From: a virus
Length of the DNA stretch: 63,788 nt
Virus record (IMG/VR): IMGVR_UViG_3300005613_000061
Span: 1-63,788 of that record
Strand: one strand, 5' to 3'
Shown here: positions 9,113 through 43,091 of the stretch, piece after piece
Position numbering within the stretch: the stretch's first letter is position 1
Layout of the letters: each line of letters begins with the position of its first letter
Position numbers and translations under genes: made by a program
The notes under the pieces: generated by a model
Seen by the model: only the letters and a program-made list of their open reading frames with translations
Told to the model about the DNA's origin: nothing
The model's database searches: none

Positions 9113-9298
9113 ATGGAAATAATAGAACAGAGTACATATTTTAGATGTATAAAATGCGGAAAAGACACTACACATCTATCTACTTGTCAAGGCGTATGTG
9201 GCGAATGTCTACATTTAAGAACTTTAGGAATAAATACAGTACACGACTATAATAGGCATTTAAAAGAAAGAAAATTAAATGAGAACAATAATAAATAG
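9113..9298 (+). CDS. small zinc-finger protein
   Basis: 61 residues with CIKCGK and CQGVCGEC, a four-Cys zinc knuckle, and a basic tail. It overlaps the next gene by 20 bases. Role unknown. Confidence 0.6.
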   Translation: MEIIEQSTYFRCIKCGKDTTHLSTCQGVCGECLHLRTLGINTVHDYNRHLKERKLNENNNK

Positions 9299-9869
9299 AA
9301 TAAGAAAAATAATACCGATAATAATTCTTTTTATTCTCTGTGGTTATACGTTAGCATGTGCAGAGACAGTTAATCAATTAAGAGTATTATACAAGAACGA
9401 CCCACACGGATTAGCCAAATGGATGAAGGGCAATATTACATATACAAAAGACTGGGACGACATACACCAATCTCCACATGTTACGGCAAAGACAGGTAAA
9501 GCAGATTGTGAAGACTACGCTATATTAGCAAGAGCCGTTTTAGGTAAAGGAAGATTAGTAGTAGAAAATGATGGTCATAACAAACATGTAATATTAGTGT
9601 TTTGGCATAAAGATATAAAATATGTATTTAGCAATCAATATTTACAAAAGTCTCAAGATTATAAATACGGCACGAATAAGAAAAAGTTTGTGCCTGATAT
9701 AAAGAATAAGTTTAAGATAGTAGGCACTAGCGCCGAGATTTTGAAGTTAAAGAGAGAAGTACAGAGATTAAAGGACGACCCATTTAATGCTGGTTATTTT
9801 AGAGATACAGAGATAAGAAAGTTAGAGGGTAAAATATATAAACTTCAAAGACAGTTAAACAGGGTATAA
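9279..9869 (+). CDS. exported transglutaminase-like cysteine peptidase
   Basis: 196 residues. A basic start, hydrophobic core (11-26) and ACA/E cleavage near 28 make a Sec signal peptide. KTGKADCEDYAILARAV at 71-87 is the GDCEDYA-type catalytic motif of bacterial transglutaminase-like Cys peptidases, with C77 as nucleophile and H103 (NKHV) as the likely His. A coiled coil follows (about 150-196). Acting outside the membrane, it could cut envelope proteins during lysis or surface remodelling; the target is unknown. TAA overlaps a GGGTATAAT box. Confidence 0.75.
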   Translation: MRTIINRIRKIIPIIILFILCGYTLACAETVNQLRVLYKNDPHGLAKWMKGNITYTKDWDDIHQSPHVTAKTGKADCEDYAILARAVLGKGRLVVENDGHNKHVILVFWHKDIKYVFSNQYLQKSQDYKYGTNKKKFVPDIKNKFKIVGTSAEILKLKREVQRLKDDPFNAGYFRDTEIRKLEGKIYKLQRQLNRV

Positions 9870-17496: not shown

Positions 17497-18564
17497 ATGA
17501 AAAAGTTACCATACGTTTTGATTAGTTTAGTACTTTGTATGATAATGAGTATAAGTTGTATAAAATCGGCGGAGGCGTTTTGGTTTTTTCCGACACAGTA
17601 CGATAAGAGTCAAGATACGAAAATAACTAAAAACGAAACGGATATAGCACAAATAGAAAGCAGAGTTGCCGAAAATCGTCTTGGAACGGGGAGCGAAAAT
17701 ACAACCGCACCATACGGGTATAATGATTATATTCCAGAAAACGGGTTTAAGAATTATATTCATAATGAAGGTTATTCCAAGATATACGACTATAAGCCGA
17801 ATAATGTAAATACTACGGCAGTGGGTTATTACGGGAAAGCGGGCAATCCCGATAGTTACGATGTAGATTATGTATTAACAGAGGAATATAATAAATACAG
17901 TAGTCAAATGCAAGATGTACGTATAGACATAAATAAGAATAATATAGATATAAATAAAGTTAACATACGTACTAATAAAAAAGCCATAGCAAAAGAAGTA
18001 ATACAACGTGTTAAGGCGGATAAAAAGTTGAATAAAAGAGTAACTACAGTTGACAAAAGTAGTAGACGACGAGATAAAATACTTAACAAAAAAATTATTA
18101 AAAACGTTGGAAATATATTAATAAATAAAAATAACATTACGGATAATTCAAATCGTATTAATTCCAATTTATATACATTACAAAATCACGAAGGACGTAT
18201 CAGTACAAACGAGGGGAATATATCGAATAATACGAGTCGCATAGCCGGATTAGAAAACAAAGTTGATGAGTTAGAAGAAACCGCAGTAGGGATACACGCA
18301 GAAGTTGATTTATATGATAGTCGTTATTTTAAAATAGGAGCATATGCTACCTCTGATATACGACACGGACGATTAGATAGCGTTATGGGAAAGATTACAT
18401 TAAAGCCATTTAAAAGTTATGAGTTAAAGAGATTAGAAAGATTAGAGAAACAATTAGCTATGTACATTGATATGGATGAATGTAACTCATTAGAATATAA
18501 AGAGTTAGAGTTAATAGAAACAAGAAATCCTGATGGAACGATAACTATTAGTACAAAAAAATAA
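17497..18564 (+). CDS. exported coiled-coil surface-like protein
   Basis: 355 residues. Signal peptide MKKLPYVLISLVLCM with AEA/F cleavage near residue 27. From about 140 there are repeated Asn-rich heptads (INKNNIDINKVNI, NKNNITDNSNRIN, NEGNISNNTSRI) as in trimeric autotransporter stalks. The C-terminal part HAEVDLYDSRYFKIGAYATS and LDSVMGKITLKPFKSYELKR is strand-rich. A trimeric stalk anchored at or released from the host surface is my inference; no proven membrane anchor is visible. Confidence 0.65.
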   Translation: MKKLPYVLISLVLCMIMSISCIKSAEAFWFFPTQYDKSQDTKITKNETDIAQIESRVAENRLGTGSENTTAPYGYNDYIPENGFKNYIHNEGYSKIYDYKPNNVNTTAVGYYGKAGNPDSYDVDYVLTEEYNKYSSQMQDVRIDINKNNIDINKVNIRTNKKAIAKEVIQRVKADKKLNKRVTTVDKSSRRRDKILNKKIIKNVGNILINKNNITDNSNRINSNLYTLQNHEGRISTNEGNISNNTSRIAGLENKVDELEETAVGIHAEVDLYDSRYFKIGAYATSDIRHGRLDSVMGKITLKPFKSYELKRLERLEKQLAMYIDMDECNSLEYKELELIETRNPDGTITISTKK

Positions 18565-19711: not shown

Positions 19712-21424
19712 ATGTATTTTCTAGGTAAATCAGCAAAAGGCAAATTAACCAACTGGTCTAAACGTAACAGTATGTTCGAGCAACTTCCTGTAGTACCGGA
19801 AGTCTTTTTTAAGGATTGGCTAAAACCGACATTGAGTGAAGAACAGTTAAAAGCCGTCCGAAGTGTTTTCCAAAACGATGATAGAGGATTACAGTGGAGT
19901 AATAAGTATCAAGAATATTTACTACTTTGGGGAGAAGGCGGCGGAAAAGATTTTATATGCGCTCGAATACTGACATACTGCGCATACTGGTTAATGTGCT
20001 TAAAAAATCCACAAGCATATTTTAATTTAGCCGACACAGAGCCCATAGACTTAGTTAATGTATCTTTAAGCGGGCGTCATGCAAAAAATGTATTTTTTTA
20101 TAAATTTAAAAATGCTCTACGAGGAGTAAAAAATCCAGAAACAGGAAAAAACTGGTTCAAGGAACAGGGAATGGATTTACGAGATGGAAAAGATGTGCAA
20201 ACCATTAGTGTAGAGTTCCCAAAAAGAATAAGAGCGCACAGTTTAAACAGTCAGACCTACGGAGGAGAAGGATTAAACGTATTACTTGCCATATTTGATG
20301 AAGTGGCAGAATTTAGAGTAGAAGATGCAAAAAAATTATACGAGGCTTTAACAAATACAGCTACATCCAGATATGGAGATGACATCTTTAAGATATTTTT
20401 AATATCGTATATGAGACATGAAAACGATTATATGATGCATAGATGGGAGAAAACCAAGAATAATTCAAATGTGTATCGAAGTTGTAAAGCTACATGGGAG
20501 GTAAATCCACGAAAGACCAAAGAGGAATTTAAAAAAGTATATGAGATTAATCCAGAAGATAGCGCAAGACGATACGAGAATAAGGATTTAAAACACAATC
20601 TAAATAAGTTTTTTAAATTTCCCAAACGTATTGATGAACGAGTTAATAAAAAAAGAAGTAGCCCATTTTTGGACAATGTATTATATACAGAGGATTTGAA
20701 TACGTTAAGTTTAGCCGACTGGTTTAAACCTAGAACTACAGAAGAATTATGGAAATTACACAGTAATAGAAAAAAAGGTTTAACAGATGCCGAACAAGCT
20801 AGAAAAACTATATTAGAACATCAACACAGTGGAGCGGTGTATAATGTGCATATTGACTTAGCAAAAGCCAACGTGGAGAACAAAAACGACTGCGCCGGAA
20901 TCGCAATGGCGCATAAGTTTTTATGTAATCCGTACGCAGAAGAAGACGAAGAATTACTGTATGGAGCCTATATAGATTTTATGATACAATTACGAAGTAA
21001 GACCGAACTTAATTTTGAAAATATAAGAAAATTTATTTATAAATTGGTTGCACTAGGTTTTCAGATAGACAAAGTTACGCTAGATGGTTGGAACTCTGTA
21101 GATTTTTGTCAATTATTAAAGCAAAAAGGCATAGGTACAGAGATATTGTCTGTAGATAGAAAACGAGACCCGTACGTTACGTTAAAAAGTTTGTTATATA
21201 CTGGACGACTAGATTATTACACATATAAAATATTTTTACGAGAGTTACACGATTTAGAGGACATTAACGATAAAATAGACCACCCTAAAGTAAGTCGAGC
21301 CAGAGCGATAGACGAAGGAACGGATAGAGGCTCAAAAGACGTTGCAGATGCGGTGGCAGGCGCAGCATTCGGCGCTATAAGCAATTCTAAAAATTCAGAC
21401 TCTATTTGGCTTCCGGGCTTTTAG
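19712..21424 (+). CDS. terL: terminase large subunit
   Basis: 570 residues. It packages DNA into the prohead by ATP hydrolysis and cuts the concatemer. LLWGEGGGKDF near 70-80 is the Walker A loop, LLAIFDEVAEF near 190-199 Walker B. The RNase H-like nuclease follows with HIDLAKAN (Asp near 382), LDGWNSVDF and KDVADAVAG (Asp for the metal). The ATG at 19712 has only AAAGG 14 bases upstream; the frame stays open upstream to a good AAGGAG at 19667-19672 but without a standard start codon, so the start is uncertain. Confidence 0.93.
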   Translation: MYFLGKSAKGKLTNWSKRNSMFEQLPVVPEVFFKDWLKPTLSEEQLKAVRSVFQNDDRGLQWSNKYQEYLLLWGEGGGKDFICARILTYCAYWLMCLKNPQAYFNLADTEPIDLVNVSLSGRHAKNVFFYKFKNALRGVKNPETGKNWFKEQGMDLRDGKDVQTISVEFPKRIRAHSLNSQTYGGEGLNVLLAIFDEVAEFRVEDAKKLYEALTNTATSRYGDDIFKIFLISYMRHENDYMMHRWEKTKNNSNVYRSCKATWEVNPRKTKEEFKKVYEINPEDSARRYENKDLKHNLNKFFKFPKRIDERVNKKRSSPFLDNVLYTEDLNTLSLADWFKPRTTEELWKLHSNRKKGLTDAEQARKTILEHQHSGAVYNVHIDLAKANVENKNDCAGIAMAHKFLCNPYAEEDEELLYGAYIDFMIQLRSKTELNFENIRKFIYKLVALGFQIDKVTLDGWNSVDFCQLLKQKGIGTEILSVDRKRDPYVTLKSLLYTGRLDYYTYKIFLRELHDLEDINDKIDHPKVSRARAIDEGTDRGSKDVADAVAGAAFGAISNSKNSDSIWLPGF

Positions 21425-21446
21425 ACGACGATAGAAAGAGGAAATT

Positions 21447-21725
21447 ATGGGCATGACCAAGAAAGAGCGACAAGGATTAAAACGATTGGTACATATTACT
21501 AATATAGTAAAATACACTCTCGGTTTACCTCTCTTAATAATAGTAACGTGTGTATTTATATACAAAATAATTAAAGAAACACTTAAGTTATTTATTGATA
21601 TAACGTTACGACCAGAAAATATAAAATCTGACATACAACGAGTCTCCGAACTTAAAGAAGGTCTTAATATTTTATGGGCCACAAACAAATTAAACGAAGA
21701 ACGTAACGAAATAAAGGATAACTAG
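21447..21725 (+). CDS. small membrane protein
   Basis: 92 residues with one hydrophobic segment (about 24-44, TLGLPLLIIVTCVFIYKII) and a helical charged remainder. It sits between terminase and portal behind AGAGGAAA. It could be a holin-like or accessory protein; nothing decisive. Confidence 0.55.
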   Translation: MGMTKKERQGLKRLVHITNIVKYTLGLPLLIIVTCVFIYKIIKETLKLFIDITLRPENIKSDIQRVSELKEGLNILWATNKLNEERNEIKDN

Positions 21726-21726
21726 C

Positions 21727-23148
21727 ATGAAAAAATGGCGAGATTTGTTAAATGGTAATAAAGAACAGAAAGAAAATGATAATTTTTTAGAGATTCACGA
21801 CCCCAATAAACCACCCTCACAGCGTTTAATAGAGAAATCCAGTAAAGGTTATATAGATGAAGCCTGTACGTGGACTGTAAGTTCTAATTCAAAGTACGTA
21901 GAACGAGATATACGAGTCACGGGAGCGGACGAAGAAGATTTATGGGACAAATATGTTTTCAATGCTTGGGTACGTGCCTGCGTTGATAAAATTATAAAAG
22001 AAGTAGTACGTTATAAAGTAGTTGCTTCTCCAACGCCGGAAAAAATGGATGACTCTCAGACTCAAAAACGAGCGGAAGAAGTACAAGCCTTGTTGAATAA
22101 TCCCAACGAAAATATAGAAAGTTTTGACGATATACGAAGAAAGTATTTAAGAGATATTCTAGTTTATGATGGCGGAGCATTAGAAATCGTATATGGTCAA
22201 AATAGACCAGTTGAAATTTACGATGTTAAAGGTAGCGATATTCGTCTGAATATAGACAAGCATGGTGATTTTAAAAATCCAGAAAATTCAGCATATAAAT
22301 TAATTAGCCCCCGTGATTATACAAAAACACTTGCAGAATGGGGAGTAAAAGAATTAATTTATTTTGTAGCTAATCCAGTAAGTGGAAGCGTATATGGTCT
22401 AAGCCCTATTGAAACATTGTGGGACGCTATTGAGAACGACGATGAGGCGGTAGAGTATAATAAAAGATTGTTGAAACATAGCGGAGTCATAAGCGGCGTA
22501 TTAGCCTTTCCGGGAATGCCAGCACCATTGTTAAAGAAAAATCAACGTTATTGGCAAGAAGAGTTACGTAAGAAAGTGCAAAAGTTAATTGTAACAAATA
22601 ACGGAGATGCAAAATTTACTAAAATGGGCGCCTCTCAGCAAGAGATGCAGTTTTTAGAGTATCAAAAATGGCTTTTAAATAAAATTATGGCAGTTTACGG
22701 ATTACAGCCGATTGTTATGGGTATAGTAGATAGTACCACTGGAAAATTAAATAGTTCAGAGCAGAGAGAACAATTTAAACAAGATGCAGTATTGCCATTA
22801 TTAAAGTTAGAGACTCATAGATTGACCGATGTACTTGTACGACAGGGTTTTGAATTTGAAGACGTAGTAATTAAGTTTGTAGAACCGGCCAGTGTTGATG
22901 AAGAATTTGATTTAGAAAAAACAAAAGTAGGCTGCGAATACGGATTTATTACAGTAAACGAAGCACGAGCCTTTACTAATCTGCCTCCACTAAAAGATAA
23001 AAATGGAAAATTGGCTCCAGAAGGTTTGGAATTAGTTAGCCCTCAAGTAAGTAAATATATGAAAGAAATGACAGAGAAAAATAAAACCGAAGACGAGATA
23101 GCCGCAGTCAAAGGCGAAATTCTACGTCTATTGGAGGAAGAACAATAA
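21727..23148 (+). CDS. portal protein
   Basis: 473 residues. It forms the ring at the packaging vertex. NAWVRACVDKIIKEVVRYK, the segment KYLRDILVYDGGALEIVY, GLSPIETLWDAI and the helix-rich region with MGIVDSTTGKLNSSEQREQF follow the order of HK97/SPP1-like portals (phage_portal families). Position behind terminase agrees. The end (EIAAVKGEILRLLEEEQ) is the usual helical crown. Its TAA overlaps the next ATG. Confidence 0.9.
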   Translation: MKKWRDLLNGNKEQKENDNFLEIHDPNKPPSQRLIEKSSKGYIDEACTWTVSSNSKYVERDIRVTGADEEDLWDKYVFNAWVRACVDKIIKEVVRYKVVASPTPEKMDDSQTQKRAEEVQALLNNPNENIESFDDIRRKYLRDILVYDGGALEIVYGQNRPVEIYDVKGSDIRLNIDKHGDFKNPENSAYKLISPRDYTKTLAEWGVKELIYFVANPVSGSVYGLSPIETLWDAIENDDEAVEYNKRLLKHSGVISGVLAFPGMPAPLLKKNQRYWQEELRKKVQKLIVTNNGDAKFTKMGASQQEMQFLEYQKWLLNKIMAVYGLQPIVMGIVDSTTGKLNSSEQREQFKQDAVLPLLKLETHRLTDVLVRQGFEFEDVVIKFVEPASVDEEFDLEKTKVGCEYGFITVNEARAFTNLPPLKDKNGKLAPEGLELVSPQVSKYMKEMTEKNKTEDEIAAVKGEILRLLEEEQ

Positions 23149-23309
23149 TGATAACTAATGAACAAATATTACAAGAAATACAAACTTTACATACTCTATT
23201 TGAAATTTTAAAAGTAGAGTATCCAATATGGTATGCATCTTTACGAGTCCCAGCTTTAGAATTAGAGCGAAGGGCCAAAAAATTAATAGGAGATATGAAC
23301 AATGGCTAG
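23148..23309 (+). CDS. small helical protein
   Basis: 53 residues, MITNEQILQEIQTLH, starting in a TAATG overlap with the portal gene and ending 8 bases inside the next one. Helical, with VEYPIWYASLRVPALE. Not recognised; the tight overlaps support it. Confidence 0.55.
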   Translation: MITNEQILQEIQTLHTLFEILKVEYPIWYASLRVPALELERRAKKLIGDMNNG

Positions 23310-25302
23310 TGAAATATATACTTTTGATACTCCGGGCGATTTTACTTACGATAGCGACAAGATAGAAGTTAGCGGAGGTTTAGCGAAATTAAAAGATTTA
23401 ACTCCCGCAGACGAAACTTTTTATGCTAGTTATAACGTTGATATAAATGGTAGTCGTGGTTTAGGCGTATTAACGGGAACAGCATATGGCGGAGCGACAG
23501 TTGATAGCGAAAAATTGGATTTAGCACATAATGATAGTAGATACGTAGATTACGATGCTGACTTAAATGCAGATAGTCAGCAAATTGGATGCATTAGATT
23601 TAAGGTCACCCCGAATTATACGGGCGCACCTTCTAGTGATAGATGGTTTTTTGCTATTTGTAAACAAAACAATAGTAAAAATAATTTAATACAATTAAGA
23701 CATTCCAAGTCTGGAGCGTATTTAAGACTTCATGTTTATGATAAAGATGGTGTTTTTGTAGTAGAGCATTTATGTGGACAATTTTTACCTACCGCAGATA
23801 CCGAATACGAAATTGAACTAAACTGGGATTTTACTACAGGTGCAACGAGAGTATTTGTTAACGGCGTACAAAATGGCTCTACGTGTACTAATACTTGTTT
23901 ACGAGATTCCGACATAGGTCTTTTTAGAATTGGAAATGACTATGATAAAGACGCAATCTCTGATTTTAAAATAGATTATTTTCAGGTTTTTTCTACAGTA
24001 CAACATACTACGGATTATACACCAGTAGCAATTCCAGAAACCATTTATTCCACAGATAAACCGACGATAAATCCGACGAGTTTATTAAATGCCCCGGATT
24101 TGTATTTATGGGACGAATTTACAGAAGTAGAAGGCGGAGGAAACGCCGGAACTTTGGCATATCAACTTTCAGATAACGGCACAGATTGGAAATACTGGAA
24201 TGGGAGCATATGGGCTGCCGTAGTAGGGGACAATTATAATTCTGCAAGTGTAGTTAGTGCTAATATAGCAAGTTTTCCAACCTCCGAAAAAAAGTTAATG
24301 TTTAAAGCCATTTTAATAAGTGACGGAGAACAAAAAGTAGAATTAGATACTATAACAATTATTTATGATAATGAGACTCCGCCAAATGTATACGCAGGAG
24401 CCGACAAAGATTGTTTAAAAGATGAAACATTTAAACCATTTTCTGACGCTGTAGTTTCAGATGTGGACGGCGATATTGAAAATGCTACTGCTTGGTACGA
24501 TATAGAAGGAAGCGGATATATACAAATTCCAAAAGGTGGCTACGGAACTTTACAAGATGCAATACGAAATTTTCAATATCAATATACAAATTTAGGAACT
24601 ATAACCAGTTCTTTAAAAATTATAGATGAACAAAGTAGAGAGACGTCCGACAATTTAGATGTTACAGTTAGTAATGTAACAGTTACATTTAATGTACGTG
24701 ATAATAACGGAAATCATCTTGCTAGTGTAGATTTTGTGGCAGGAGACGGCACACCTTCGCAGTCAAAAAGTTCGCCATTTACATATGATTACCCGCACAC
24801 AGACACATATTTTACAGCGACTTTTAATAAGACAGGATATAGCGAAGCGACAGCACAAGTAACTTCTACAGAACATGTGGAAAATATAGTTATGGCAAGT
24901 GAGATGACAGTTAGTTACCCTATAACAATAGAGATAGACGGCATTTCGAGTTCTTTGGGAGGAACCTTAGAAAATATTGTAAAAGGCGACTCTATAGATT
25001 TTACATGTACAGTAACAGATACAGATATTTCAGGATGGAAAATACGTTGTGAGATTTACGATAATGACGGCAATTCTATAAAGTTAGCAACCGCCAATAG
25101 TGGAGGAAGTGACGACCAAATAGAAATAACGGACTCAAGCGAAGGAGAATTTACAGTACATGTAGACAAAGAAGAAACCACAGACTTTAAAGATACGGCA
25201 AGAATAGAGATAGAATTTGAATTGACTGCCGAAAAATTAATAACAGGTTATCAGAGTATTATAGCTTTTAAAAGAGAACGAATAGAATGGGAAACACCCT
25301 AA
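23302..25302 (+). CDS. large virion-type protein with concanavalin/LamG-like and Ig-like domains
   Basis: 666 residues, no signal peptide (unlike the next four genes). Residues 1-230 have a jelly-roll layout with YEIELNWDFTTGATRVFVNG, as in LamG-like carbohydrate-binding folds. Residues about 240-350 include LYLWDEFTEVEGGG and YQLSDNGTDWKYWNG, 350-450 a PKD/Ig-like segment (PPNVYAGADKD, VVSDVDGD), then further Ig-like repeats. Probably a particle-attached carbohydrate-binding or decoration protein. AGGAGA precedes the ATG. Confidence 0.65.
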   Translation: MASEIYTFDTPGDFTYDSDKIEVSGGLAKLKDLTPADETFYASYNVDINGSRGLGVLTGTAYGGATVDSEKLDLAHNDSRYVDYDADLNADSQQIGCIRFKVTPNYTGAPSSDRWFFAICKQNNSKNNLIQLRHSKSGAYLRLHVYDKDGVFVVEHLCGQFLPTADTEYEIELNWDFTTGATRVFVNGVQNGSTCTNTCLRDSDIGLFRIGNDYDKDAISDFKIDYFQVFSTVQHTTDYTPVAIPETIYSTDKPTINPTSLLNAPDLYLWDEFTEVEGGGNAGTLAYQLSDNGTDWKYWNGSIWAAVVGDNYNSASVVSANIASFPTSEKKLMFKAILISDGEQKVELDTITIIYDNETPPNVYAGADKDCLKDETFKPFSDAVVSDVDGDIENATAWYDIEGSGYIQIPKGGYGTLQDAIRNFQYQYTNLGTITSSLKIIDEQSRETSDNLDVTVSNVTVTFNVRDNNGNHLASVDFVAGDGTPSQSKSSPFTYDYPHTDTYFTATFNKTGYSEATAQVTSTEHVENIVMASEMTVSYPITIEIDGISSSLGGTLENIVKGDSIDFTCTVTDTDISGWKIRCEIYDNDGNSIKLATANSGGSDDQIEITDSSEGEFTVHVDKEETTDFKDTARIEIEFELTAEKLITGYQSIIAFKRERIEWETP

Positions 25303-25327
25303 AACTTAAATAAAAGGAGAATAACAA

Positions 25328-25729
25328 ATGAAGACATCTAAAATTTTAGTAAGTATGTTAGTAGTAATAATGCTTTTTACGAGTACAGCCTTTGCGGTTA
25401 ATTATCAGTATCGTACTTCAGAGATTAGACCGACAGTCGAGGCGCCGTTTCAGGATTACGTAGTAGATACGGTAAGTGCTACAAATGCGGCATACGTGGA
25501 AGCAAGTTTAACTTTAACAGGAATATATGCAAATTTTGTAAGATTATTAAATGACAGTAATTATGATGCGTTAGTAAAATTAAATGACGACGACGCATTT
25601 ACACTACAGGCAGGATTTACTATGTCAGTAGCTTTTGATGGCATTACAAGCGTAAAAATTACATCCAAAACGGCAGATACTGCAGTCGTAGAAGTCTCTG
25701 TTTGGGGACGTACAGATATTGACGTTTAA
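25328..25729 (+). CDS. exported beta-rich protein (signal peptide)
   Basis: 133 residues: MKTSKILVSMLVVIML, then AFA/V cleavage near residue 23, followed by about 110 residues of predicted strands (YVEASLTLTGIYANFVRLL, TLQAGFTMSVAFDG, AVVEVSVWGR). The mature part resembles small beta domains of phage virion or decoration proteins. Behind AAAGGAG. First of four successive genes with Sec signal peptides. Confidence 0.65.
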   Translation: MKTSKILVSMLVVIMLFTSTAFAVNYQYRTSEIRPTVEAPFQDYVVDTVSATNAAYVEASLTLTGIYANFVRLLNDSNYDALVKLNDDDAFTLQAGFTMSVAFDGITSVKITSKTADTAVVEVSVWGRTDIDV

Positions 25730-25756
25730 CAAATTATATAAGGAGAAAAGGACATT

Positions 25757-28708
25757 ATGAAAAAATTTATTGCATGGTTACTTATTTTATCACTTTGCTT
25801 ATACAATACTCCTGCATTTGCGGGAAATATTCAAGACACAATGGGCAAAAAAGCCGTAGAAAATATTATAGCGAATTATGATGGAGTATCTACGGCAGAA
25901 AAATTCTTAAATACGAATACGGTATCTTTCTCAGACGGGGATACGACGCCTTCGGTAAATACTGGAAATATTTTTCTAACTACTAATACCGGAGCCACCA
26001 CCGTAACCGATTTTGAAGATGGTACGGATACCCAAAAACTTTCTATTAATTTTGGAGATGTAAATACTACTATACAACATGGCGCCAACATAGTTTTACA
26101 AGGAGCAGCAGATTTTACGGGACAAGCGGGAGATTCCGTATCTTTTGTACATGTGAACGGACAATGGCGTGAAGTTGGACGAAGTGGCGCAGTTCCCGGA
26201 GCAACATATAAAGTAAAAGTTTCAGGAGTAGATACTACCGCCAATTATTTATCTACAAAATTGACAGGAAGTAATGGTATTAAATATGCCGCATCTGGCG
26301 CAGGCAATGAAACTTTGGATATTTATCTTGATTATAATACAGACAATTTAAAGATTACATCAACGGAACTAAATACTATTCAAGATATAACTACAACTGA
26401 TACACCCACATTTAATAGACTTATTCTTAGTAGTGCGCCTACAAGCGGTAGTCATGCAACAACGAAAGACTATGTGGATACTGCTATTCAGGGGTTAGAT
26501 TGGCAAGAAAGTGTAAAAAGTTTTTTAAACTTTGTAACAAGTGAGCCAGTAGCTCCCGGAACAGGCGATAGACATATAAATACAACTACAGGAACATCCT
26601 CAGAAACTAGTCAAAGCGTCACCGCAAATTATATATATGAATGGAATGGCGCAAGTTGGACAGAAACAGCGGTAGTAGAGGGAGAAGCAGTATGGAACGA
26701 AGATGATAATGTATTATATGTTTTTAATGGGTCTGATTGGGTAAGATTCGGAGCAACTATGAGTCATAATCTTACCACGGGAAAACAAGGCGGAACTGTA
26801 GACGAATATTATCATCTAACATCTACAGAATATGGAGGTAATTGGGGAGTAAAAAGTCTACAATCTACAGGAACTTTACAGATTGGAAATACTACTATTG
26901 GTTCAGGTGTAGCAGATACAGACTATACTTTAACGTTTAATGGCGAAGACAATGACGGAGTATTTACATTTATGGAAGATGAAAATAGGCTTGATTTTGA
27001 TAGCGATTTTAAAGTTACAGGCACTATAAATGGTACTACTGATGTACAAGTTAATGGAGTCAGCGTTCTAACGTCAGAAGTTGACGGAGATGTAACTAAC
27101 GAAATAAATACGATTACAGCAGATGATGCTGGTACTACTGCAGGACTTGCTATTACACTAGCAGGCGCTGGAATTTCTACAACTTCTAGGTCCGGCGATA
27201 CTATTACAGTAACTTCAACAGAGGTTGATGGTAGTACAACAAATGAAATAAATACTATTACGGCAGATGATGCGGGTACTACAACAGGTTTAGGAATTAC
27301 TATTGCTGGTGGAGGTATAAATGCTACTACACGTTCCGGCGATACTATTACCGTAACCGGTACTGAAGTGGATGGAAGTACTAGTAATGAAATTAACACA
27401 ATAACCGCAGATGATGCTGGCACTACTAGTGGTTTAGCTATCACGTTAGCAGGAGCAGGAATTGCCGAAACAAGTAGTCTTGGAGATACTATTACGGTTA
27501 CGGCTACTGAAGTTGATGGCAGTACAACAAACGAAATTAATACAATTACAGCCGACGATGCTGGTACTACTAGTGGTTTAGCCATTACTGTAGCCGGCGG
27601 AGGGATTAATACCACTACACGTTCTGGTGACACAATAACTGTAACTGGAACAGAAGTTGATGGGAGTACTTCTAATGAGATTAATACAATTACAGCGGAT
27701 GACGCAGGCACTACAAATGGCTTAGCTATTACGATAGCTGGCGGAGGCATAAACGCTACTACGAGGTCAGGCGATACGATTACTGTAACTGGTACAGAGG
27801 TAGACGGAAGTACAACAAACGAAATTAACACTATTACCGCAGACGATGCTGGAACAACTTCTGGACTAGCCGTAACTCTTGCAGGAGCGGGAATTAGTAC
27901 TACGTCTAGGTCAGGTGATACTATAACTGTAACAAGTACAGAAGCGGACACATTGGCAACAGTTACAGGACGTGGGGCAAGTACAACTACATCTCTTACT
28001 ATAGGTAGTAGCACAATAGGAGAAGGAGCCGCCGGAGTTGATTATACATTAACTTTTGACGGGGATGATGCCGACGGTGTTGTAACCTTCGACGAAGATT
28101 TAGCAAAGTTTATTTTTGACCAAGATGCACAAGTTACCGGCACTATTAACGGTACCGTAGATGTTCAAGTAAACGGAACAAGTGTATTAACAACAGACGC
28201 AGTTTTAGACTCATTAAATAATGTTGCGGCAATGTCAGAAGCAAATGGAGACATTCTTTATTATAACAGTGATTGGAAAAACTTAGCCAAAGCAAGTGAT
28301 GGGGATATATTAACTTTAGCTTCTGGATTACCTAGTTGGTATACTCCGGCAACAAAGGCATTTAGTTTTACTATAGCAAAGCCATTGGATTTAGATGAGT
28401 CAGATACTTTCCCAGTTTGGGTAAATAGAACAGGGAAAACTTTTACTATTTCAGCAATTTATAGCAATAGTGACACGGACGACACAGCATTTACTTTGAA
28501 AGAGGTAAATGACCATACAGATTTTACGGATTTAACGACTATAGAAGCGATAACAATTAATACAGATGGCACAGGCGTATATTATAATGATTTAACGTCA
28601 GGCATTGACCACACAGTTATCGAGACAACACATTTAATAGTGTTTGATAACGATGCGGCCGACGACCCAGACTATGTTAATGTAACAGTAGTTGGAAGTT
28701 TAAGTTAA
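25757..28708 (+). CDS. tail-fibre-like repeat protein with a signal peptide
   Basis: 983 residues. A signal peptide (MKKFIAWLLILSLCLYN, PAFA/G near 22) precedes phage fibre material: a region at about 235-350 with GLDWQESVK, APGTGDRHI, YEWNGASWTET and NGSDWVRFG, typical of fibre proteins. Six tandem 48-residue repeats follow (441-728) with NEINTITADDAGTT and GDTITVT, then another beta region. A Sec signal on such a protein is unusual: it should leave the cytoplasm before particles assemble. It may be displayed on the host surface or released. Confidence 0.7.
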   Translation: MKKFIAWLLILSLCLYNTPAFAGNIQDTMGKKAVENIIANYDGVSTAEKFLNTNTVSFSDGDTTPSVNTGNIFLTTNTGATTVTDFEDGTDTQKLSINFGDVNTTIQHGANIVLQGAADFTGQAGDSVSFVHVNGQWREVGRSGAVPGATYKVKVSGVDTTANYLSTKLTGSNGIKYAASGAGNETLDIYLDYNTDNLKITSTELNTIQDITTTDTPTFNRLILSSAPTSGSHATTKDYVDTAIQGLDWQESVKSFLNFVTSEPVAPGTGDRHINTTTGTSSETSQSVTANYIYEWNGASWTETAVVEGEAVWNEDDNVLYVFNGSDWVRFGATMSHNLTTGKQGGTVDEYYHLTSTEYGGNWGVKSLQSTGTLQIGNTTIGSGVADTDYTLTFNGEDNDGVFTFMEDENRLDFDSDFKVTGTINGTTDVQVNGVSVLTSEVDGDVTNEINTITADDAGTTAGLAITLAGAGISTTSRSGDTITVTSTEVDGSTTNEINTITADDAGTTTGLGITIAGGGINATTRSGDTITVTGTEVDGSTSNEINTITADDAGTTSGLAITLAGAGIAETSSLGDTITVTATEVDGSTTNEINTITADDAGTTSGLAITVAGGGINTTTRSGDTITVTGTEVDGSTSNEINTITADDAGTTNGLAITIAGGGINATTRSGDTITVTGTEVDGSTTNEINTITADDAGTTSGLAVTLAGAGISTTSRSGDTITVTSTEADTLATVTGRGASTTTSLTIGSSTIGEGAAGVDYTLTFDGDDADGVVTFDEDLAKFIFDQDAQVTGTINGTVDVQVNGTSVLTTDAVLDSLNNVAAMSEANGDILYYNSDWKNLAKASDGDILTLASGLPSWYTPATKAFSFTIAKPLDLDESDTFPVWVNRTGKTFTISAIYSNSDTDDTAFTLKEVNDHTDFTDLTTIEAITINTDGTGVYYNDLTSGIDHTVIETTHLIVFDNDAADDPDYVNVTVVGSLS
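27077..27940 (+). repeat. six tandem 144-bp coding repeats
   Basis: Six in-frame units of 48 codons in the gene at 25757. The protein repeats are nearly identical, while the DNA copies differ at many third positions. This shows long-standing selection on the protein and probably avoidance of recombination between units. Confidence 0.9.
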
Positions 28709-28738
28709 AACAAATAAAATAACAAAAGGAGAAGTAAG

Positions 28739-29152
28739 ATGAAAAAAATACTCGCAATGATTTTAATGACGGCATTAATAGCTACTTCATTGATTGCTAC
28801 ACCGTTGTATGCTCAAGAAGAAGATGTTTCCGAAAGCGGAGTAATTGACGTAGTAGAACCAGAGCCGACTCTTAATTATGTTTTTAGAGAAGTCAACTTA
28901 AGTAAATTGAGTAAGTTTATTGATTTAAGAAATGAGTTAAATGCGGCAAAGAACGTTTTAATTCAAGCTGCTATTGACATAAGTAAAGCCAAAGCAAAAG
29001 TACAAAAGAAATTTACAGAAGTTGCAGTGCAGTTAGATGGCGTCACAATAACTAAATTTCAAAATCGTTTTGCAGAAGTTGAGCAAATTAATGCTTCAAT
29101 AGACACTTTAATAGAGGAGTTAAACAATGACTGGAACGACTATAATGCGTAA
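28739..29152 (+). CDS. exported helical protein (signal peptide)
   Basis: 137 residues: MKKILAMILMTALIATS with LYA/Q cleavage near 25, an acidic linker (EEDVSESGVIDVVEPEPT), then a long helical region (LRNELNAAKNVLIQAAIDI, AEVEQINASIDTLIEELN). Behind AAAGGAGAAG. It could be a chaperone or stalk for the neighbouring exported fibre; no family recognised. Confidence 0.65.
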   Translation: MKKILAMILMTALIATSLIATPLYAQEEDVSESGVIDVVEPEPTLNYVFREVNLSKLSKFIDLRNELNAAKNVLIQAAIDISKAKAKVQKKFTEVAVQLDGVTITKFQNRFAEVEQINASIDTLIEELNNDWNDYNA

Positions 29153-29957
29153 GCTATTTTTAGCAATACTCATAAGTTTTGTTTTATGCTCTATCAATAT
29201 TTCACCGGTAGCTGCGGCAGGATTAGATGCAGACACTAATTTATTATTACATTTAAACGGGACTGATGGAAGTACTACTATGCCAGATAGTTCGATAACT
29301 AATAATAAAGGTAATGCTACAGTAACTCTTAATGCGGAATTAGACACCACATATAAGAAATTTGGAACGGCAGCATTATTATTAGATAACACAAATAGTT
29401 ATATATCCTACGCAGATAGTTCAGATTGGGATGTATTTGCCAACACGGTAGATGACTGGACTATAGACTTATGGGTAAGACATGCACAATTACCATCTAA
29501 TGAAGATTGGTACTTTTATCACGAGGAAGATTCATCTAATAACTGGAGATTTAGACGTGCCGGAGGCGTAGCAGGAGCAACAAATTTTCGTTTAAAAGTA
29601 GGAAATGTTTATACTCTATCTCTAAGTGGAGCCGGAATAACAGATACAGACTGGCATCATGTTTGTCTTGTAAAGAAAGGAAATGAATATGGGTTATACC
29701 TAGATGGCGTTCAAGGAGGATACGTACAAAGTAATGAGGTAGGAAATTTTACCGGCTCGTTATATATTGGTAAACCGGATACTACAAATTATTTTGATGG
29801 TAGTATAGATGAACCAAGAATACAGCACTCTAACTATTTTAATGCGGCACCTAATGTAGGTTTAACCGATACAATAACTGTACCGATAGCAGAGTATAGT
29901 GCAGATACGCCAACAAGTATGTCGCAATTAATAATAACAACTTTATTTGATTATTAG
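29127..29957 (+). CDS. exported LamG-like jelly-roll protein
   Basis: 276 residues, signal peptide with PVAAA/G cleavage near 30-31 (MRKLFLAILISFVLCS preceded by six residues; GAGGAG sits before ATG 29127). The mature part is a LamG/concanavalin-like domain: LLLHLNGTDGSTTM, DDWTIDLWVRH, WHHVCLVKKGNEYGLYLDG and GSIDEPRI are its classical strands. Such domains bind sugars or surface proteins. It overlaps the previous gene by 26 bases. It is probably exported to the cell surface or periplasm. Confidence 0.75.
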   Translation: MTGTTIMRKLFLAILISFVLCSINISPVAAAGLDADTNLLLHLNGTDGSTTMPDSSITNNKGNATVTLNAELDTTYKKFGTAALLLDNTNSYISYADSSDWDVFANTVDDWTIDLWVRHAQLPSNEDWYFYHEEDSSNNWRFRRAGGVAGATNFRLKVGNVYTLSLSGAGITDTDWHHVCLVKKGNEYGLYLDGVQGGYVQSNEVGNFTGSLYIGKPDTTNYFDGSIDEPRIQHSNYFNAAPNVGLTDTITVPIAEYSADTPTSMSQLIITTLFDY

Positions 29958-29972
29958 AAAGGTCGCAATGCC

Positions 29973-30236
29973 ATGTTAAAAAAATTAGTGACAGGAATAC
30001 ATTTAAGACGTTTATCCAAGAACTTGAATGCATTGTTAGCCAAGGTAGTAAAATTACCCACCCAACAAATGTTAAAGTTTTACGATATTACATGGAATGG
30101 CGTATCTAAGACATTGATAGGCGTAAGCGAAAAAGTATTTACGCCAGAGAATTGTAAAGTAATAACAGAAGCGCTAATCTCTTATTATACTAAAGAACAG
30201 AATGGTGCAGGAGTAGAATTTAAGAAAAAATTTTAA
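29973..30236 (+). CDS. hypothetical protein
   Basis: 87 residues, MLKKLVTGIHLRRLSK, basic and helical, with an amphipathic N-terminus that is not a signal peptide. It precedes the MuF-type head gene. Not recognised. Confidence 0.55.
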   Translation: MLKKLVTGIHLRRLSKNLNALLAKVVKLPTQQMLKFYDITWNGVSKTLIGVSEKVFTPENCKVITEALISYYTKEQNGAGVEFKKKF

Positions 30237-30252
30237 AGGAGTTGTTATAGAT

Positions 30253-32016
30253 ATGACAACGAAGAGAGAAAGACTATACAGACTATTAGACATTATTGAA
30301 GAGTTTGAGGATAATATACGTTACGGTGTGGCGTACAGGCCCTTCAATAATGTTGTTTCATCTAAAAAAGAGGCGTTAGTTAATTACGACAAAGAAGAAG
30401 CAGAGATAATACGTCTTGTACGAAAGTACCAACGAGATTTAGTAGCCGCAGGTATTTCCTCACTTATTCAAGCCTTTAAGAAGAACATCACAAAAAATAC
30501 CGAATTATTTAAGGCATGGGACTACGAGATATTTCAAAAGTGGCAAGAAGATTTAGGCGCCAAGATTCCAGCCATACAAGAAAATTTTAAAAATAAAATG
30601 ATAGTTCCTTTAACTATATCATATGGCAAAGGTTACAACAAGGGTATAGAAGATTTGGGATTTGAGCCTATGCCGGAAAGAAGTTGGTTTTATCTTCCCG
30701 GACACGCAGTACCACGTTTGACCGCTCTAAAAATGTCATGGTACATTAGTAGAAAAGTATCATTAGACATGGTAGACATTATCATGGATGGTATGCGTGA
30801 AGGGTTAAATGGTAGAGAAATAGGAAGAAATTTACGTAAAGTAAGTACTGCTCCGAAAGTAGTAAACGTAGCTCCTAAAGTAGTTGATGGTGTCGTAACA
30901 AGAAAAGGTTACTCGTATACAATACCAAATAGACGCTGGACAGAAATGATAGGACGTACAGAAGCAAACCGTGCCACCACAATGGGAAGAGTAGAAAGTT
31001 ATAATACAAGTAAAATGGTTAAAAGTTTAGAACATATTACAGCAGGGGACAAACGAGTATGTCCAATATGTGAGCCATTAGACGGAAAAGTATATACATT
31101 AGCCGAAGCAGGAAAAGCAATTCCAGTTCATGTTATGTGTAGATGTACCGTAGAAGTACATGAGTATTACTCAGATGCGAAGCCAGAAAAGGCAGAAGAG
31201 AATTTTAAATTGGATGACGTTGATAGAACTATAAATACGGCTCCGATTAGCTGGGGTAATGCTCCATTGGTTCGCTGGAATACTAGAACTAGAACTTTAG
31301 CCGAAGATATGAAAAGATATGAACGACATTTAAAGGCACGGGGTCTTAACACCGTAAAAGGTCGGAAGCAAGTATATGAAAGATTAGAGAAGCAGTTATA
31401 TGATTTAAAAGTTACTCAGTTAAAGGGGTTTAAGAGTGCAGATATTAGAAGACTATATACAATGCACACAGTTAAAAATACACGACATGAGATAGCACGA
31501 AATATTATAGGAAAAGATAGAATAAAGCCTACCACTATTGAGTTAAAGAAAGAATATAAAAGAGTACCACGAGCATACGCTAGTACTACCACAAATAAAT
31601 TTAATAGATTTGGGGGTCAAGGATATGATAGCGCATATCAATTAGAATTATATAGTAAAAACTCATTTAGACCAGAAAGAACCGTGTTAAATTTACAACA
31701 CTCTATAGCACATGAAATGGGCCATCAACTACACTATGAATCTTCAAAAGATTTTATTAAAACATGGGGCGAAGAGTTTTTACGTACAAAGGAAAACGTA
31801 AAAGTTCTTAGTTGGAAGCCTTATATTATAGAAGGAGAGACTATAGGGAAACAGCCTATTATGAACCTAAGAGAGGCAGGATTTGTTACTAACTATGCCA
31901 CCGTAAAACATACGGAAGACTTTGCAGAATCTTTTGCTACATATGTATATAATCCGAATGATTTAAAATTGGCGAGTTCACGTAAGTATAAATTAATGAA
32001 AGATTTTGTAGAGTAA
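30253..32016 (+). CDS. MuF-type head morphogenesis protein fused to a zinc metallopeptidase
   Basis: 587 residues. Residues 1-310 are a phage Mu gpF/SPP1 gp7-like minor head protein: RTEANRATTMGRVESYN, then CPICEPLDGKVYTL (C270, C273) and PVHVMCRCTVE, its hallmark. The C-terminal part has HEMGHQLH (H487, E488, H491) and EDFAESFATYVYNP with further zinc ligand candidates, a zincin fold. MuF proteins carrying C-terminal effector domains are a known polymorphic architecture; if injected with DNA, the peptidase would act in the newly infected cell. Processing of head proteins is an alternative. Confidence 0.85.
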   Translation: MTTKRERLYRLLDIIEEFEDNIRYGVAYRPFNNVVSSKKEALVNYDKEEAEIIRLVRKYQRDLVAAGISSLIQAFKKNITKNTELFKAWDYEIFQKWQEDLGAKIPAIQENFKNKMIVPLTISYGKGYNKGIEDLGFEPMPERSWFYLPGHAVPRLTALKMSWYISRKVSLDMVDIIMDGMREGLNGREIGRNLRKVSTAPKVVNVAPKVVDGVVTRKGYSYTIPNRRWTEMIGRTEANRATTMGRVESYNTSKMVKSLEHITAGDKRVCPICEPLDGKVYTLAEAGKAIPVHVMCRCTVEVHEYYSDAKPEKAEENFKLDDVDRTINTAPISWGNAPLVRWNTRTRTLAEDMKRYERHLKARGLNTVKGRKQVYERLEKQLYDLKVTQLKGFKSADIRRLYTMHTVKNTRHEIARNIIGKDRIKPTTIELKKEYKRVPRAYASTTTNKFNRFGGQGYDSAYQLELYSKNSFRPERTVLNLQHSIAHEMGHQLHYESSKDFIKTWGEEFLRTKENVKVLSWKPYIIEGETIGKQPIMNLREAGFVTNYATVKHTEDFAESFATYVYNPNDLKLASSRKYKLMKDFVE

Positions 32017-37162: not shown

Positions 37163-37732
37163 ATGTTTAGTAAAGTTTGTTTAATATGTGGAAATCCACA
37201 TAATAATAAAAAATACTGTTCAAGGGCATGTACAAATACAGCCACCAAAAAAGGAACAGTACTTACCGAAAACCACCGCACCAAAATAGCTAAATCTATG
37301 CAAGGGAAAAATAAGAGTAAAGAAAATCCCTTTTATAGTAAATGTCACTCTAAAAAAACTCGTAAGTATATAGGTGACTGCCAGCGTGGAGAAAAACATC
37401 ATTACTATACCGAAAAAAATACTTTATTTAAAGCAAACGGCTATATTAAAATTAATATAAGAGAGGAACATCCGTTTTTAAGAAAGGGTATAATGTCATA
37501 TCATAGATTCGTTATGGCAAATCGTTTAGGACGTAAATTACTCAAGACGGAGGTTGTACATCACAAAGACTGTAACCCTTTAAATAACGATATTAAAAAT
37601 CTAATGTTATTTAAAAATAAATCTGAACATAATAAATATCATGCAAAATTTAATAGAATTGCTGCCAAACTGTTAGGAAATAAGACAGCCAAAGAACTTA
37701 TACAGACATATCATATATTAGAGAAGGAATAG
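37163..37732 (+). CDS. free-standing HNH homing endonuclease with NUMOD3-like region
   Basis: 189 residues. An N-terminal zinc knuckle (CLICGNPH, YCSRACTN), a NUMOD3-like DNA-binding stretch (HRTKIAKSMQGKNKSKENPF, residues about 38-57), then the HNH core TEVVHHKDCNPLNNDIKNL near 131-150. It cuts DNA to spread itself; its insertion right behind the capsid gene is typical. It carries an internal GGGTATAAT box (37486), probably by chance. Confidence 0.85.
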   Translation: MFSKVCLICGNPHNNKKYCSRACTNTATKKGTVLTENHRTKIAKSMQGKNKSKENPFYSKCHSKKTRKYIGDCQRGEKHHYYTEKNTLFKANGYIKINIREEHPFLRKGIMSYHRFVMANRLGRKLLKTEVVHHKDCNPLNNDIKNLMLFKNKSEHNKYHAKFNRIAAKLLGNKTAKELIQTYHILEKE

Positions 37733-37734
37733 AA

Positions 37735-40104
37735 ATGATAAGATTGTCAACAGAATTAGACATATATTATAAGAGTAAAGACAAAAACAAGTTTGTACGA
37801 CAAGTTTCATCTACAGTAATAACCCCATTTAAAGCATTCCCTCTATTGTTGATATTTGCAAGTCACATATTTAATCCAGAATATAATGAGAAACTTATTA
37901 TAGAAGCCATAAAAAAGAATTTTATTATTATATACTTCTGCGACAAAATACCAGATGATGCAATTATCCATGAAAGTATCATTTATATAAAAGCCAAGTG
38001 GAGATACTTTGATACTAGTATTTTTAAAGACATAAATCAATTTTCCGCCGTACATGGTGTAAATAAAAAGGGAGAAAAATTAGCTCTACAATATGCTAGA
38101 GTATTTAGTAAGAAATATATACGTAACTCCAATGAACTCTCGGAGATTGTAAAACATCATCAAGATATACAAGAAAATGTTACTATATTGTTTGATACTA
38201 TTTTTGAATGTGGCGACAGAGGTCTGGGAGATATTTTATTAACCACGCCTATAGTAACGGAATTAAAGAAAAAATTTAACGCCAGTATAACTTACGCATG
38301 TAGACCAAAGGCAGCCGAACTTCTACAGAATAACCCGGACATTGATAAAGTTATAACTAAATACAGCGACCTAGAGAAGTTACAATTTACATATCATTTA
38401 CCGCTCATTAGACATACTGAAAATTATAAAGTATCTCGTAATAGACAATGCCGAACAGATAGCTTAGCCGACCTATTTATGGTTACGCTACCAAAAGATA
38501 ATGTGCTACCAAAAATTTATCTCACACCAAAAGAAATACAAAATGCCAATCGGTTAGTAAATAAAGTACATAAGATTAAATTAGGTATAAATATAGAGGC
38601 AACATCATCCGCAAGACGTTGGACATACGGATATTTATTAGAGTTATTCAAATTATTAGGAGAAGAAGATTCCAAATATGAATTTTATTTATTTGGGTCC
38701 GGCGACAGAATGAAAATAACGGGTATTCCAAAATATATACATAACTTTATCGGGAAATTAACTTTAAGAGACTCCATAGCAGTAATGAGCAAAATGGACA
38801 TGGCATTAACTACTGATTCATTATACAGTCATGTAGCTGGAGCATTTAAAATACCGCAAGTTTGCATCTATACTACAATACCGGCAGAATGGCGAAATAA
38901 GTATTATAAAAGTATAGGGGTACAAGGGACGACGAAATGTAGCCCATGTTGCGACTTTCAATTTCTAACTAAGGAGGACTATGATAAGTGTGATAGATTT
39001 GGAGTGCCGCCTTGTGTCAAGAGCATAACGCCCGATACGATAATGAAAAATTTAGAGATATGTAAACGCCGATATAATGTAGATACTTATTCCACAAAAG
39101 AGACTATACTTATTAATAGAAGTAGTGGGCTCGGAGATATATTAATGTTAACATCAGTATTGCATGACCTACGTCTAAAAGAGAAGGACGCCTTTATAAC
39201 ATTAAGAACAAATTGTCCAGACCTATTTATAGGGAACTCTGACGTGGACGAAATACTTACCGGCACATATATACCCGATAAGGATTTACAAACTAGATTT
39301 TATGATTATGACCGAATATACAATTTTGATTACTGTTTAGAGAGTTATGGAGTAGCTGGAAAACTTGGCAAAATAAGTGATAAGGATTATATGACTGTTT
39401 CACGTATAGATTTATTATATAACTGGGCCAAGATGAAATGTCCGAAAAATCCGAAATTGTATTATTTCGTTACTGAGTCTGAGAAAAGGCGAGTTGAGAA
39501 AATGCTAAAAACTTTATGGGGAAAGAAAACAGTAACATACGTATTAAACTGTACTTCACCATATAGAACCTATCCGATAAAAGAAAGTTTAAAAGTTATA
39601 GAGGAACTCTCCAAAACTCATAATGTGTTCATCATAGGAAATAGCATTACAATGTGGGGAGAGGACCATGAATTTAATAAAGTATACTATGAAGTTCTTA
39701 ACAGATTAAATGGGAGATATGTCGTAGACTTAGTAGATAAAACGGAGTTACGTCTAGCCTGCGCAATTATAGAGCATAGTGATTTAGTAATTACTCCTGA
39801 CACAGGCATGCTTCATGTAGCCAATGCGGTAGATACGACATGTTTGGCACTATTCGGCAATATTGACCCGTATCTACGAGTTAAGTATTATAAAAATACT
39901 TCAACTATCTATAAGAATATCTCATGTGCAGAAGGGTGCGGTGACAGAGGAAATTTTATGAGAAGTGGAAAAATAATCTGTCCCGACTTTTATAGAGTAA
40001 AGGAGCCTGAAAAGAGAATTGGAGCAATATGTATGAGAGCCATAACTTCAGAAGAGATTATACAGAAATCAAAAGAATTACTACAGAATGGAGGTACACT
40101 ATGA
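37735..40104 (+). CDS. tandem heptosyltransferase-like (GT9) glycosyltransferase
   Basis: 789 residues. About 150 unrecognised residues come first, then two copies of a GT9-like fold: GDRGLGDILLTTPIVTELKK near 160-180 with SKMDMALTTDSLYSHVAGAF, and SSGLGDILMLTSVLHDLR near 464 with HSDLVITPDTGMLHVANAVD. Both show the GLGD and DTG/DSL signatures of ADP-heptose:LPS heptosyltransferases, which transfer sugars to lipopolysaccharide core. One polypeptide with two such domains is rare. It opens a run of surface-sugar genes and overlaps the next gene by 4 bases. Confidence 0.8.
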   Translation: MIRLSTELDIYYKSKDKNKFVRQVSSTVITPFKAFPLLLIFASHIFNPEYNEKLIIEAIKKNFIIIYFCDKIPDDAIIHESIIYIKAKWRYFDTSIFKDINQFSAVHGVNKKGEKLALQYARVFSKKYIRNSNELSEIVKHHQDIQENVTILFDTIFECGDRGLGDILLTTPIVTELKKKFNASITYACRPKAAELLQNNPDIDKVITKYSDLEKLQFTYHLPLIRHTENYKVSRNRQCRTDSLADLFMVTLPKDNVLPKIYLTPKEIQNANRLVNKVHKIKLGINIEATSSARRWTYGYLLELFKLLGEEDSKYEFYLFGSGDRMKITGIPKYIHNFIGKLTLRDSIAVMSKMDMALTTDSLYSHVAGAFKIPQVCIYTTIPAEWRNKYYKSIGVQGTTKCSPCCDFQFLTKEDYDKCDRFGVPPCVKSITPDTIMKNLEICKRRYNVDTYSTKETILINRSSGLGDILMLTSVLHDLRLKEKDAFITLRTNCPDLFIGNSDVDEILTGTYIPDKDLQTRFYDYDRIYNFDYCLESYGVAGKLGKISDKDYMTVSRIDLLYNWAKMKCPKNPKLYYFVTESEKRRVEKMLKTLWGKKTVTYVLNCTSPYRTYPIKESLKVIEELSKTHNVFIIGNSITMWGEDHEFNKVYYEVLNRLNGRYVVDLVDKTELRLACAIIEHSDLVITPDTGMLHVANAVDTTCLALFGNIDPYLRVKYYKNTSTIYKNISCAEGCGDRGNFMRSGKIICPDFYRVKEPEKRIGAICMRAITSEEIIQKSKELLQNGGTL

Positions 40105-41628: not shown

Positions 41629-41630
41629 TT

Positions 41631-42440: not shown

Positions 42441-42441
42441 A

Positions 42442-43038: not shown

Positions 43039-43091
43039 TATTAAAACTACTATAATAAAATAGTATCTTTATAATAAGGTAATGTATATCT

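What the first reader, a model, noticed from the sequence alone, without database searches (positions are those of the whole stretch)
25328..29957. Four successive genes with Sec signal peptides inside the virion gene block
Between portal and MuF genes the phage has four proteins with clear signal peptides (AFA/V, PAFA/G, LYA/Q, VAAA/G): a small beta protein, a 983-residue fibre-like protein, a helical protein and a LamG-like protein. Virion proteins of tailed phages are assembled in the cytoplasm and do not carry such signals. The set looks like an exported complex, for example a surface adhesin or fibre with a helical partner and a sugar-binding cap. Two further exported proteins are at 9279 and 17497.
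Basis: partly seen in the sequence, partly recalled or inferred. Interest (0 to 1): 0.78.

Follow-up and report, generated by a model that had tools for sequence, protein, structure and literature searches.

The report
Phage fibre genes carrying export signals
A virus of bacteria carries, among its particle-building genes, four genes in a row whose proteins bear the address tag that sends proteins out of the cell, two of them looking like attachment fibres or sugar-binding caps, and several unrelated viruses do much the same, which is odd because such virus particles are built inside the cell.

Summary
Genes 25328-29957 are four successive phage genes with Shine-Dalgarno sites, normal phage codon usage and strong Sec signal peptides. 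A predictor tested on E. coli (17 of 18 exported called, 0 of 57 others) finds signals in 6 of 94 window genes, four of them consecutive. The window is a siphovirus-like record: portal, MuF, protease, capsid and tape-measure genes are recognised. The block lies at a gain/loss site after the portal: absent in the closest relative with that site (which keeps a headless glycine-rich fragment) and held by signal-less collagen-like fibres in two distant ones.

The 983-residue protein is a fibre mosaic. Modules it shares with signal-less phage fibres sit behind a signal peptide instead of a virion-docking N-terminus. Its 48-residue repeat recurs only in signal-bearing proteins (9 of 9 ORFs, 6 contig groups). 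In one group the signal is kept while its sequence diverges (26-37% identity, mature 56-75%).

Best reading: late-made, Sec-exported fibre-like and lectin-like proteins acting outside the cytoplasm, most likely at the surface of the infected cell (receptor masking/adhesion). Post-lysis loading onto virions is not excluded. No experiment exists; the host is unknown.

The parts
23302..25302 (+). 666-aa LamG-like protein, no signal peptide; first gene of the insertion after the portal
   Evidence: Laminin_G_3 2.3e-4, below cut-off; not called
25328..25729 (+). 133-aa protein, signal peptide cleaved at about AFA/V; weak Pfam Enas (0.002, below cut-off)
   Evidence: alone its structure prediction failed (pLDDT 38.7)
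25757..28708 (+). 983-aa fibre-like mosaic: signal peptide (PAFA/G), phrog_21413 module (50-139), DUF2793-like module (about 220-373; Pfam match 259-329 just below cut-off), array of 48-residue repeats (about 440-749), C-terminal region
   Evidence: (144-nt spacing)
27077..27952 (+). array of 144-nt (48-residue) repeats inside the 983-aa gene
28739..29152 (+). 137-aa protein, signal peptide (LIA/T or LYA/Q); mature part predicted as two long helices
   Evidence: pLDDT 75.0, single sequence
29127..29957 (+). 276-aa LamG (concanavalin-like) protein with signal peptide; start at 29127 has a Shine-Dalgarno
21727..23148 (+). portal protein, upstream flank of the site
29973..30236 (+). 87-aa protein with a similar 86-aa ORF at the same place in L014, downstream flank of the site
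   Evidence: similarity judged by eye
30253..32016 (+). MuF head protein with C-terminal metallopeptidase-like domain
17497..18564 (+). 355-aa protein with signal peptide, adhesin-like (phrog_17426, 1.8e-5); separate locus
9279..9869 (+). 196-aa protein with signal peptide, weakly transglutaminase-like (Pfam below cut-off); separate locus

Best explanation
The block is a cassette of fibre-like and lectin-like proteins that the phage encodes among its virion genes but sends out of the cytoplasm through the host's Sec pathway. In the 983-residue protein, body modules of ordinary phage fibres follow a cleavable signal peptide instead of an N-terminal virion-docking domain. Signal peptidase would release the mature proteins beyond the inner membrane, from where they reach or coat the surface of the infected cell. 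There the LamG and fibre parts bind glycans, masking the phage's own receptor (superinfection exclusion, no loss of progeny on debris) or sticking infected cells to surfaces or each other. Shown by sequence: the genes, the predicted signals, the fibre and lectin modules, the variable insertion site, recurrence in other phages, retention of the signal in one other group. Inferred: late expression (from gene position), actual export and cleavage, surface display, receptor masking, and that the four act together.
For: Signals strong and specific against E. coli, shuffled and control-phage sets. 983-aa modules also occur in phage proteins without signals: SKP1 Gp17 tail fibre, L001, L002, L013, Halorubrum viruses; the LamG domain in L034's 978-aa fibre-like protein. 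The 48-aa repeat occurs in 9 of 9 signal-bearing ORFs from 6 contig groups; several have recognised terminase, capsid or tail genes. In the L035/L036/L038 group the 252-269-aa protein keeps a signal whose sequence is 26-37% identical against 56-75% for the mature part. crAss001 fibres dock by N-terminal residues (PMC10172136, passages), which a cleaved signal would displace. The site after the portal is variable. 19 of 103 genes in repeat contigs have signals against 5 of 278 in the others (L006 and L035 are near-duplicates).
Against: No experiment; no host known (searches found no relative in genome contigs), so it is not known that the host has an outer membrane. Nothing is seen that would hold the mature proteins at the surface: no further TM-like segment, and no sorting motif was searched for systematically. 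The 133- and 137-aa proteins have no relatives in the scans (only weak hits), so no conservation test exists for the window's own set. My predictor can confuse N-terminal membrane anchors with signals (RexB).
Confidence: 0.5

Rival explanations
1. The proteins are virion fibres assembled outside the cytoplasm: exported, folded and trimerised in the periplasm or medium, then joined to particles when lysis mixes the compartments.
For: Position in the virion operon, fibre architecture, and position after the portal where crAss001 has a head fibre and a tail fibre and where L025/L030 have a signal-less collagen-like fibre. In another group signal genes lie right after the capsid gene.
Against: No docking N-terminus recognised in the mature 983-aa protein; mature 133-, 983- and 137-aa proteins have no Cys and the 276-aa one has a single Cys, so no disulphide reason for export; no precedent found in the papers searched.
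Confidence: 0.2
2. Host-derived surface-protein genes (morons) carried by the phage for the benefit of the host cell or for general adhesion, with no tie to the phage's own receptor.
For: The block is inserted relative to L014; [quoted passage not shown] this phage also carries glycan-modifying genes.
Against: Codon usage and GC match the phage; the modules hit viral sequences, and the plasmid search gave only one DUF2793 hit; I saw no obvious lysogeny gene in the ORFs I read, though not every gene was searched.
Confidence: 0.2
3. The N-terminal hydrophobic segments are not signal peptides but membrane anchors or artefacts of start choice.
For: The predictor is home-made and can call some TM anchors; no SignalP was available.
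Against: All four have n-, h- and c-regions with acceptable cleavage sites and no second hydrophobic segment; Shine-Dalgarno at each start; E. coli TM proteins 0 of 16 called.
Confidence: 0.1

Closest known systems
Lambda Lom (exported outer membrane protein encoded after tail gene J)
   Same: Signal peptide, encoded in the late virion operon; the predictor calls it
   Different: A single gene for an outer membrane protein; here four genes, one a 983-aa fibre mosaic and one a lectin-like protein
Podovirus tail fibre Gp17 of Klebsiella phage SKP1
   Same: Shares the 56-141 module of the 983-aa protein at 42.6%
   Different: No signal peptide; annotated as a tail fibre
crAss001 head fibre gp21 and tail fibre gp22
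   Same: Fibre genes directly after the portal
   Different: No signal peptide called on them; dock to the virion by N-terminal residues (PMC10172136 passages)
PblA/PblB of Streptococcus mitis phage SM1
   Same: Phage tail proteins with an adhesive activity outside the phage (platelet aggregation; PMC6722419 passages)
   Different: That they lack a signal peptide and leave by lysis is recalled, not from a call; no sequence comparison made
Signal-bearing fibre-like proteins in viral contigs L003, L035, L036, L038, L007/L009, L008, L010
   Same: Signal peptide plus fibre-like body in or beside a virion gene block; all but L036 share the 48-aa repeat
   Different: Other phage groups; neighbours and C-termini differ (Fib_succ_major, LamG, beta-helix); most have no PHROGs match

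Membership tests
Tailed-phage virion tail/head fibre | fibre body modules shared with known fibres | tested here: met
   983-aa: phrog_21413 2.2e-10, SKP1 Gp17, DUF2793 relatives L001/L002
Tailed-phage virion tail/head fibre | cytoplasmic protein with N-terminal virion-docking domain, no export signal | tested here: not met
   signal peptide instead
Tailed-phage virion tail/head fibre | present in the particle | not testable with these tools
   needs proteomics
Sec-exported (SPI) proteins | n-, h-, c-region with acceptable cleavage site, no further TM | tested here: met
Sec-exported (SPI) proteins | export and cleavage in cells | not testable with these tools
   needs reporter fusion or N-terminal sequencing
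Lom-type exported late protein | exported protein encoded inside the late virion operon | tested here: met
   position between portal and MuF; lambda Lom called as positive control; lateness inferred from position
Lom-type exported late protein | Lom-family outer membrane protein (PF06316, accession named in PMC9836094) | tested here: not met
   no such Pfam match in any of the four
Laminin G / concanavalin-like lectin | PF13385 above curated cut-off | tested here: met
   276-aa: 57.4 bits against cut-off 27.6
Endospore appendage (Ena) subunit | PF13157 above curated cut-off | tested here: not met
   133-aa: 18.6 bits against 22

The most novel reading that the evidence does not exclude
A recurrent, unnamed class of tailed-phage 'export fibres': fibre proteins whose virion-docking N-terminus has been replaced by a Sec signal, encoded with the virion and used outside the cytoplasm, possibly joining particles only after lysis, so that part of the virion would be matured outside the cell.
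Probability: 0.25. Interest if true: 0.85.

Novelty: new variant of a known kind. Interest (0 to 1): 0.6.

Why it matters
Tailed-phage particles are assembled in the cytoplasm, so virion-block fibre genes are annotated as particle parts. If fibre-like proteins with Sec signals are exported instead, some 'tail fibre' annotations in uncultured phages are wrong about location, and phages have a protein-based way to recoat the infected cell. The repeat and the signal give a simple sequence rule for finding more.

Tried and rejected

Rejected: pilus/Ena reading of the 133-aa protein (below cut-off). Baculovirus PEP match of the 137-aa protein (20 bits against 38) as coiled-coil chance. Foreign composition of the block.

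Papers: ten searches; none listed a paper on Sec signals on fibre proteins of tailed phages, judged from titles and abstract starts. I read passages by find in PMC8144416, PMC5723332, PMC8143477, PMC10172136, PMC6722419, PMC11064738 and PMC9836094, and only listings for the others.

Full report
What the window is. The record is a 63,788-base virus record. Recognised genes are portal and MuF, head protease, major capsid and tape measure, with weak terminase hits, so it is a siphovirus-like tailed phage. No cultured phage matches the DNA of 19712-32016 and no relative was found in genome contigs, so the host is unknown.

The observation. The four ORFs are present as stated, each behind a Shine-Dalgarno site, with gaps of 27 and 30 nt and a 26-nt overlap, and codon usage and GC like the rest of the phage. 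I wrote a signal-peptide predictor (weight matrix recalled plus n-, h- and c-region rules). On two E. coli K-12 stretches (75 labelled genes) it called 17 of 18 exported proteins and 0 of 57 cytosolic or membrane proteins. In the window it of 94 greedy genes: the four here plus 9279 and 17497; the set is stable at thresholds 2 to 5, and at 7 only 17497 drops out. Of 70 non-gene ORFs 2 are called. Shuffling N-terminal residues gives 0.74 calls per genome and no run above 2 in 200 trials. In lambda, T7, P22, Mu and the first 50 kb of crAss001 and phi38:1, 9 of 341 greedy genes are called; the lambda hits are the known exported Lom and Bor and one membrane protein, RexB, which shows the predictor's weak side. 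None of the 9 lies on a gene annotated as a fibre (compare).

The site. In L014, the closest relative with the site (portal 63%, capsid 77% identical), portal is followed by an 86-aa ORF like the window's 87-aa one and then MuF; the five genes 23302-29957 are absent and a headless, open glycine-rich fragment of about 80 residues remains. In two distant relatives, L025 and L030 (terminase 47% and 42%), the same place holds a 99-aa protein and a collagen-like fibre, both without signals. The place after the portal is therefore a gain-and-loss site for fibre-type genes. crAss001 also keeps a head fibre (gp21) and a tail fibre (gp22) there (PMC10172136 passages).

The proteins. The 983-aa protein has a phrog_21413 module shared with the tail fibre of Klebsiella phage SKP1, a DUF2793-like module shared with proteins of L001, L002, L004, L013 and Halorubrum viruses (Pfam 1.6e-5, just below cut-off), and an array of 48-residue repeats. 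The 276-aa protein is a LamG domain whose nearest relative (42%) is part of a 978-aa signal-less fibre-like protein in L034. The 137-aa protein is predicted as two long helices. The 133-aa protein has no usable model (low confidence, strands only) and no relatives.

Signals elsewhere. For each relative whose N-terminus I could see, I scored the signal. Signal-less: L001, L002, L013, L046, L047 (DUF2793), L045 (phrog_21413) and L034 (LamG), that is 0 of 7 with a signal; a further, weaker LamG relative in L010 has one. Signal-bearing: all 9 ORFs with the repeat module (L003, L005, L006, L007, L009, L008, L010, L011, L012), from 6 contig groups after near-duplicates are merged. One caution: the scan that found these contigs used short peptide patterns that included the start of the window's own signal peptide, although the confirmed matches lie in the repeats. 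Recognised phage genes in these contigs are terminase in L003, L009 and L035, capsid in L003 and L005, and a gpJ-like tail protein in L008; L010 has one virion-structural match. Counting all greedy genes, 19 of 103 in repeat contigs are called against 5 of 278 in other viral contigs (L006 and L035 are near-duplicates, and some of the 5 look like membrane anchors). Four cultured-phage proteins that share modules with the L008 protein have no signal (0 of 4 fetched of 9 hits).

Retention of the signal. In the L035, L036 and L038 group, signal-bearing genes lie after the capsid gene, interleaved with signal-less ones. The 252-269-aa protein keeps a signal in all three while its sequence is 26-37% identical there against 56-75% in the mature part. 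In L036 the gene after the capsid is called only from an internal start with a good Shine-Dalgarno. This pattern, function kept and sequence free, is what a working signal peptide shows; three sequences are few.

Reading. The simplest account is that the 983-aa protein is a fibre body whose virion-docking end was exchanged for an export signal, and that it and its neighbours work outside the cytoplasm. I favour the surface of the infected cell, where fibre and lectin parts could mask the receptor or make cells stick. Loading onto virions after lysis is the bolder alternative that no result here excludes. Export itself I put at about 0.85; the surface role at 0.5. That the four proteins act together is unproven.

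Novelty. Exported proteins from late phage operons are known (Lom; PMC9836094 passages), and phage tail proteins with adhesive roles are known (PblA/PblB; PMC6722419 passages). Clusters of Sec-signal fibre-like genes in the virion block, recurring in several phage groups, I did not find in ten searches of the paper library, which lacks most subscription journals.

Noticed in passing
37163-43667: Island between capsid and head-completion genes with an HNH-like gene (by eye), glycosyltransferase 9, polysaccharide pyruvyl transferase, methyltransferases, sulfotransferase and FkbM methyltransferase; a similar gene to the glycosyltransferase also follows the capsid gene in L020.
   Followed up: partly
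30253-32016: MuF protein with a C-terminal zinc metallopeptidase-like domain (Peptidase_Mx1 8.1e-10, HEMGH motif); may be a MuF-linked effector.
   Followed up: no
L015 6382-8762, L018 3299-5488, L030 9974-12190: Terminase large-subunit genes of relatives are interrupted by intein-like stretches (by eye).
   Followed up: no
L014 3591-3842: Headless open glycine-rich fragment, probable leftover of a fibre gene, right after the portal.
   Followed up: yes
60441-62963: DNA polymerase A protein preceded by a uracil-DNA-glycosylase-like N-terminal part (by eye, not searched).
   Followed up: no
L035 11933-16864: 1643-aa signal-bearing fibre-like protein ends in a Fib_succ_major domain (4.9e-31, searched as the L005 copy of the same contig).
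   Followed up: partly
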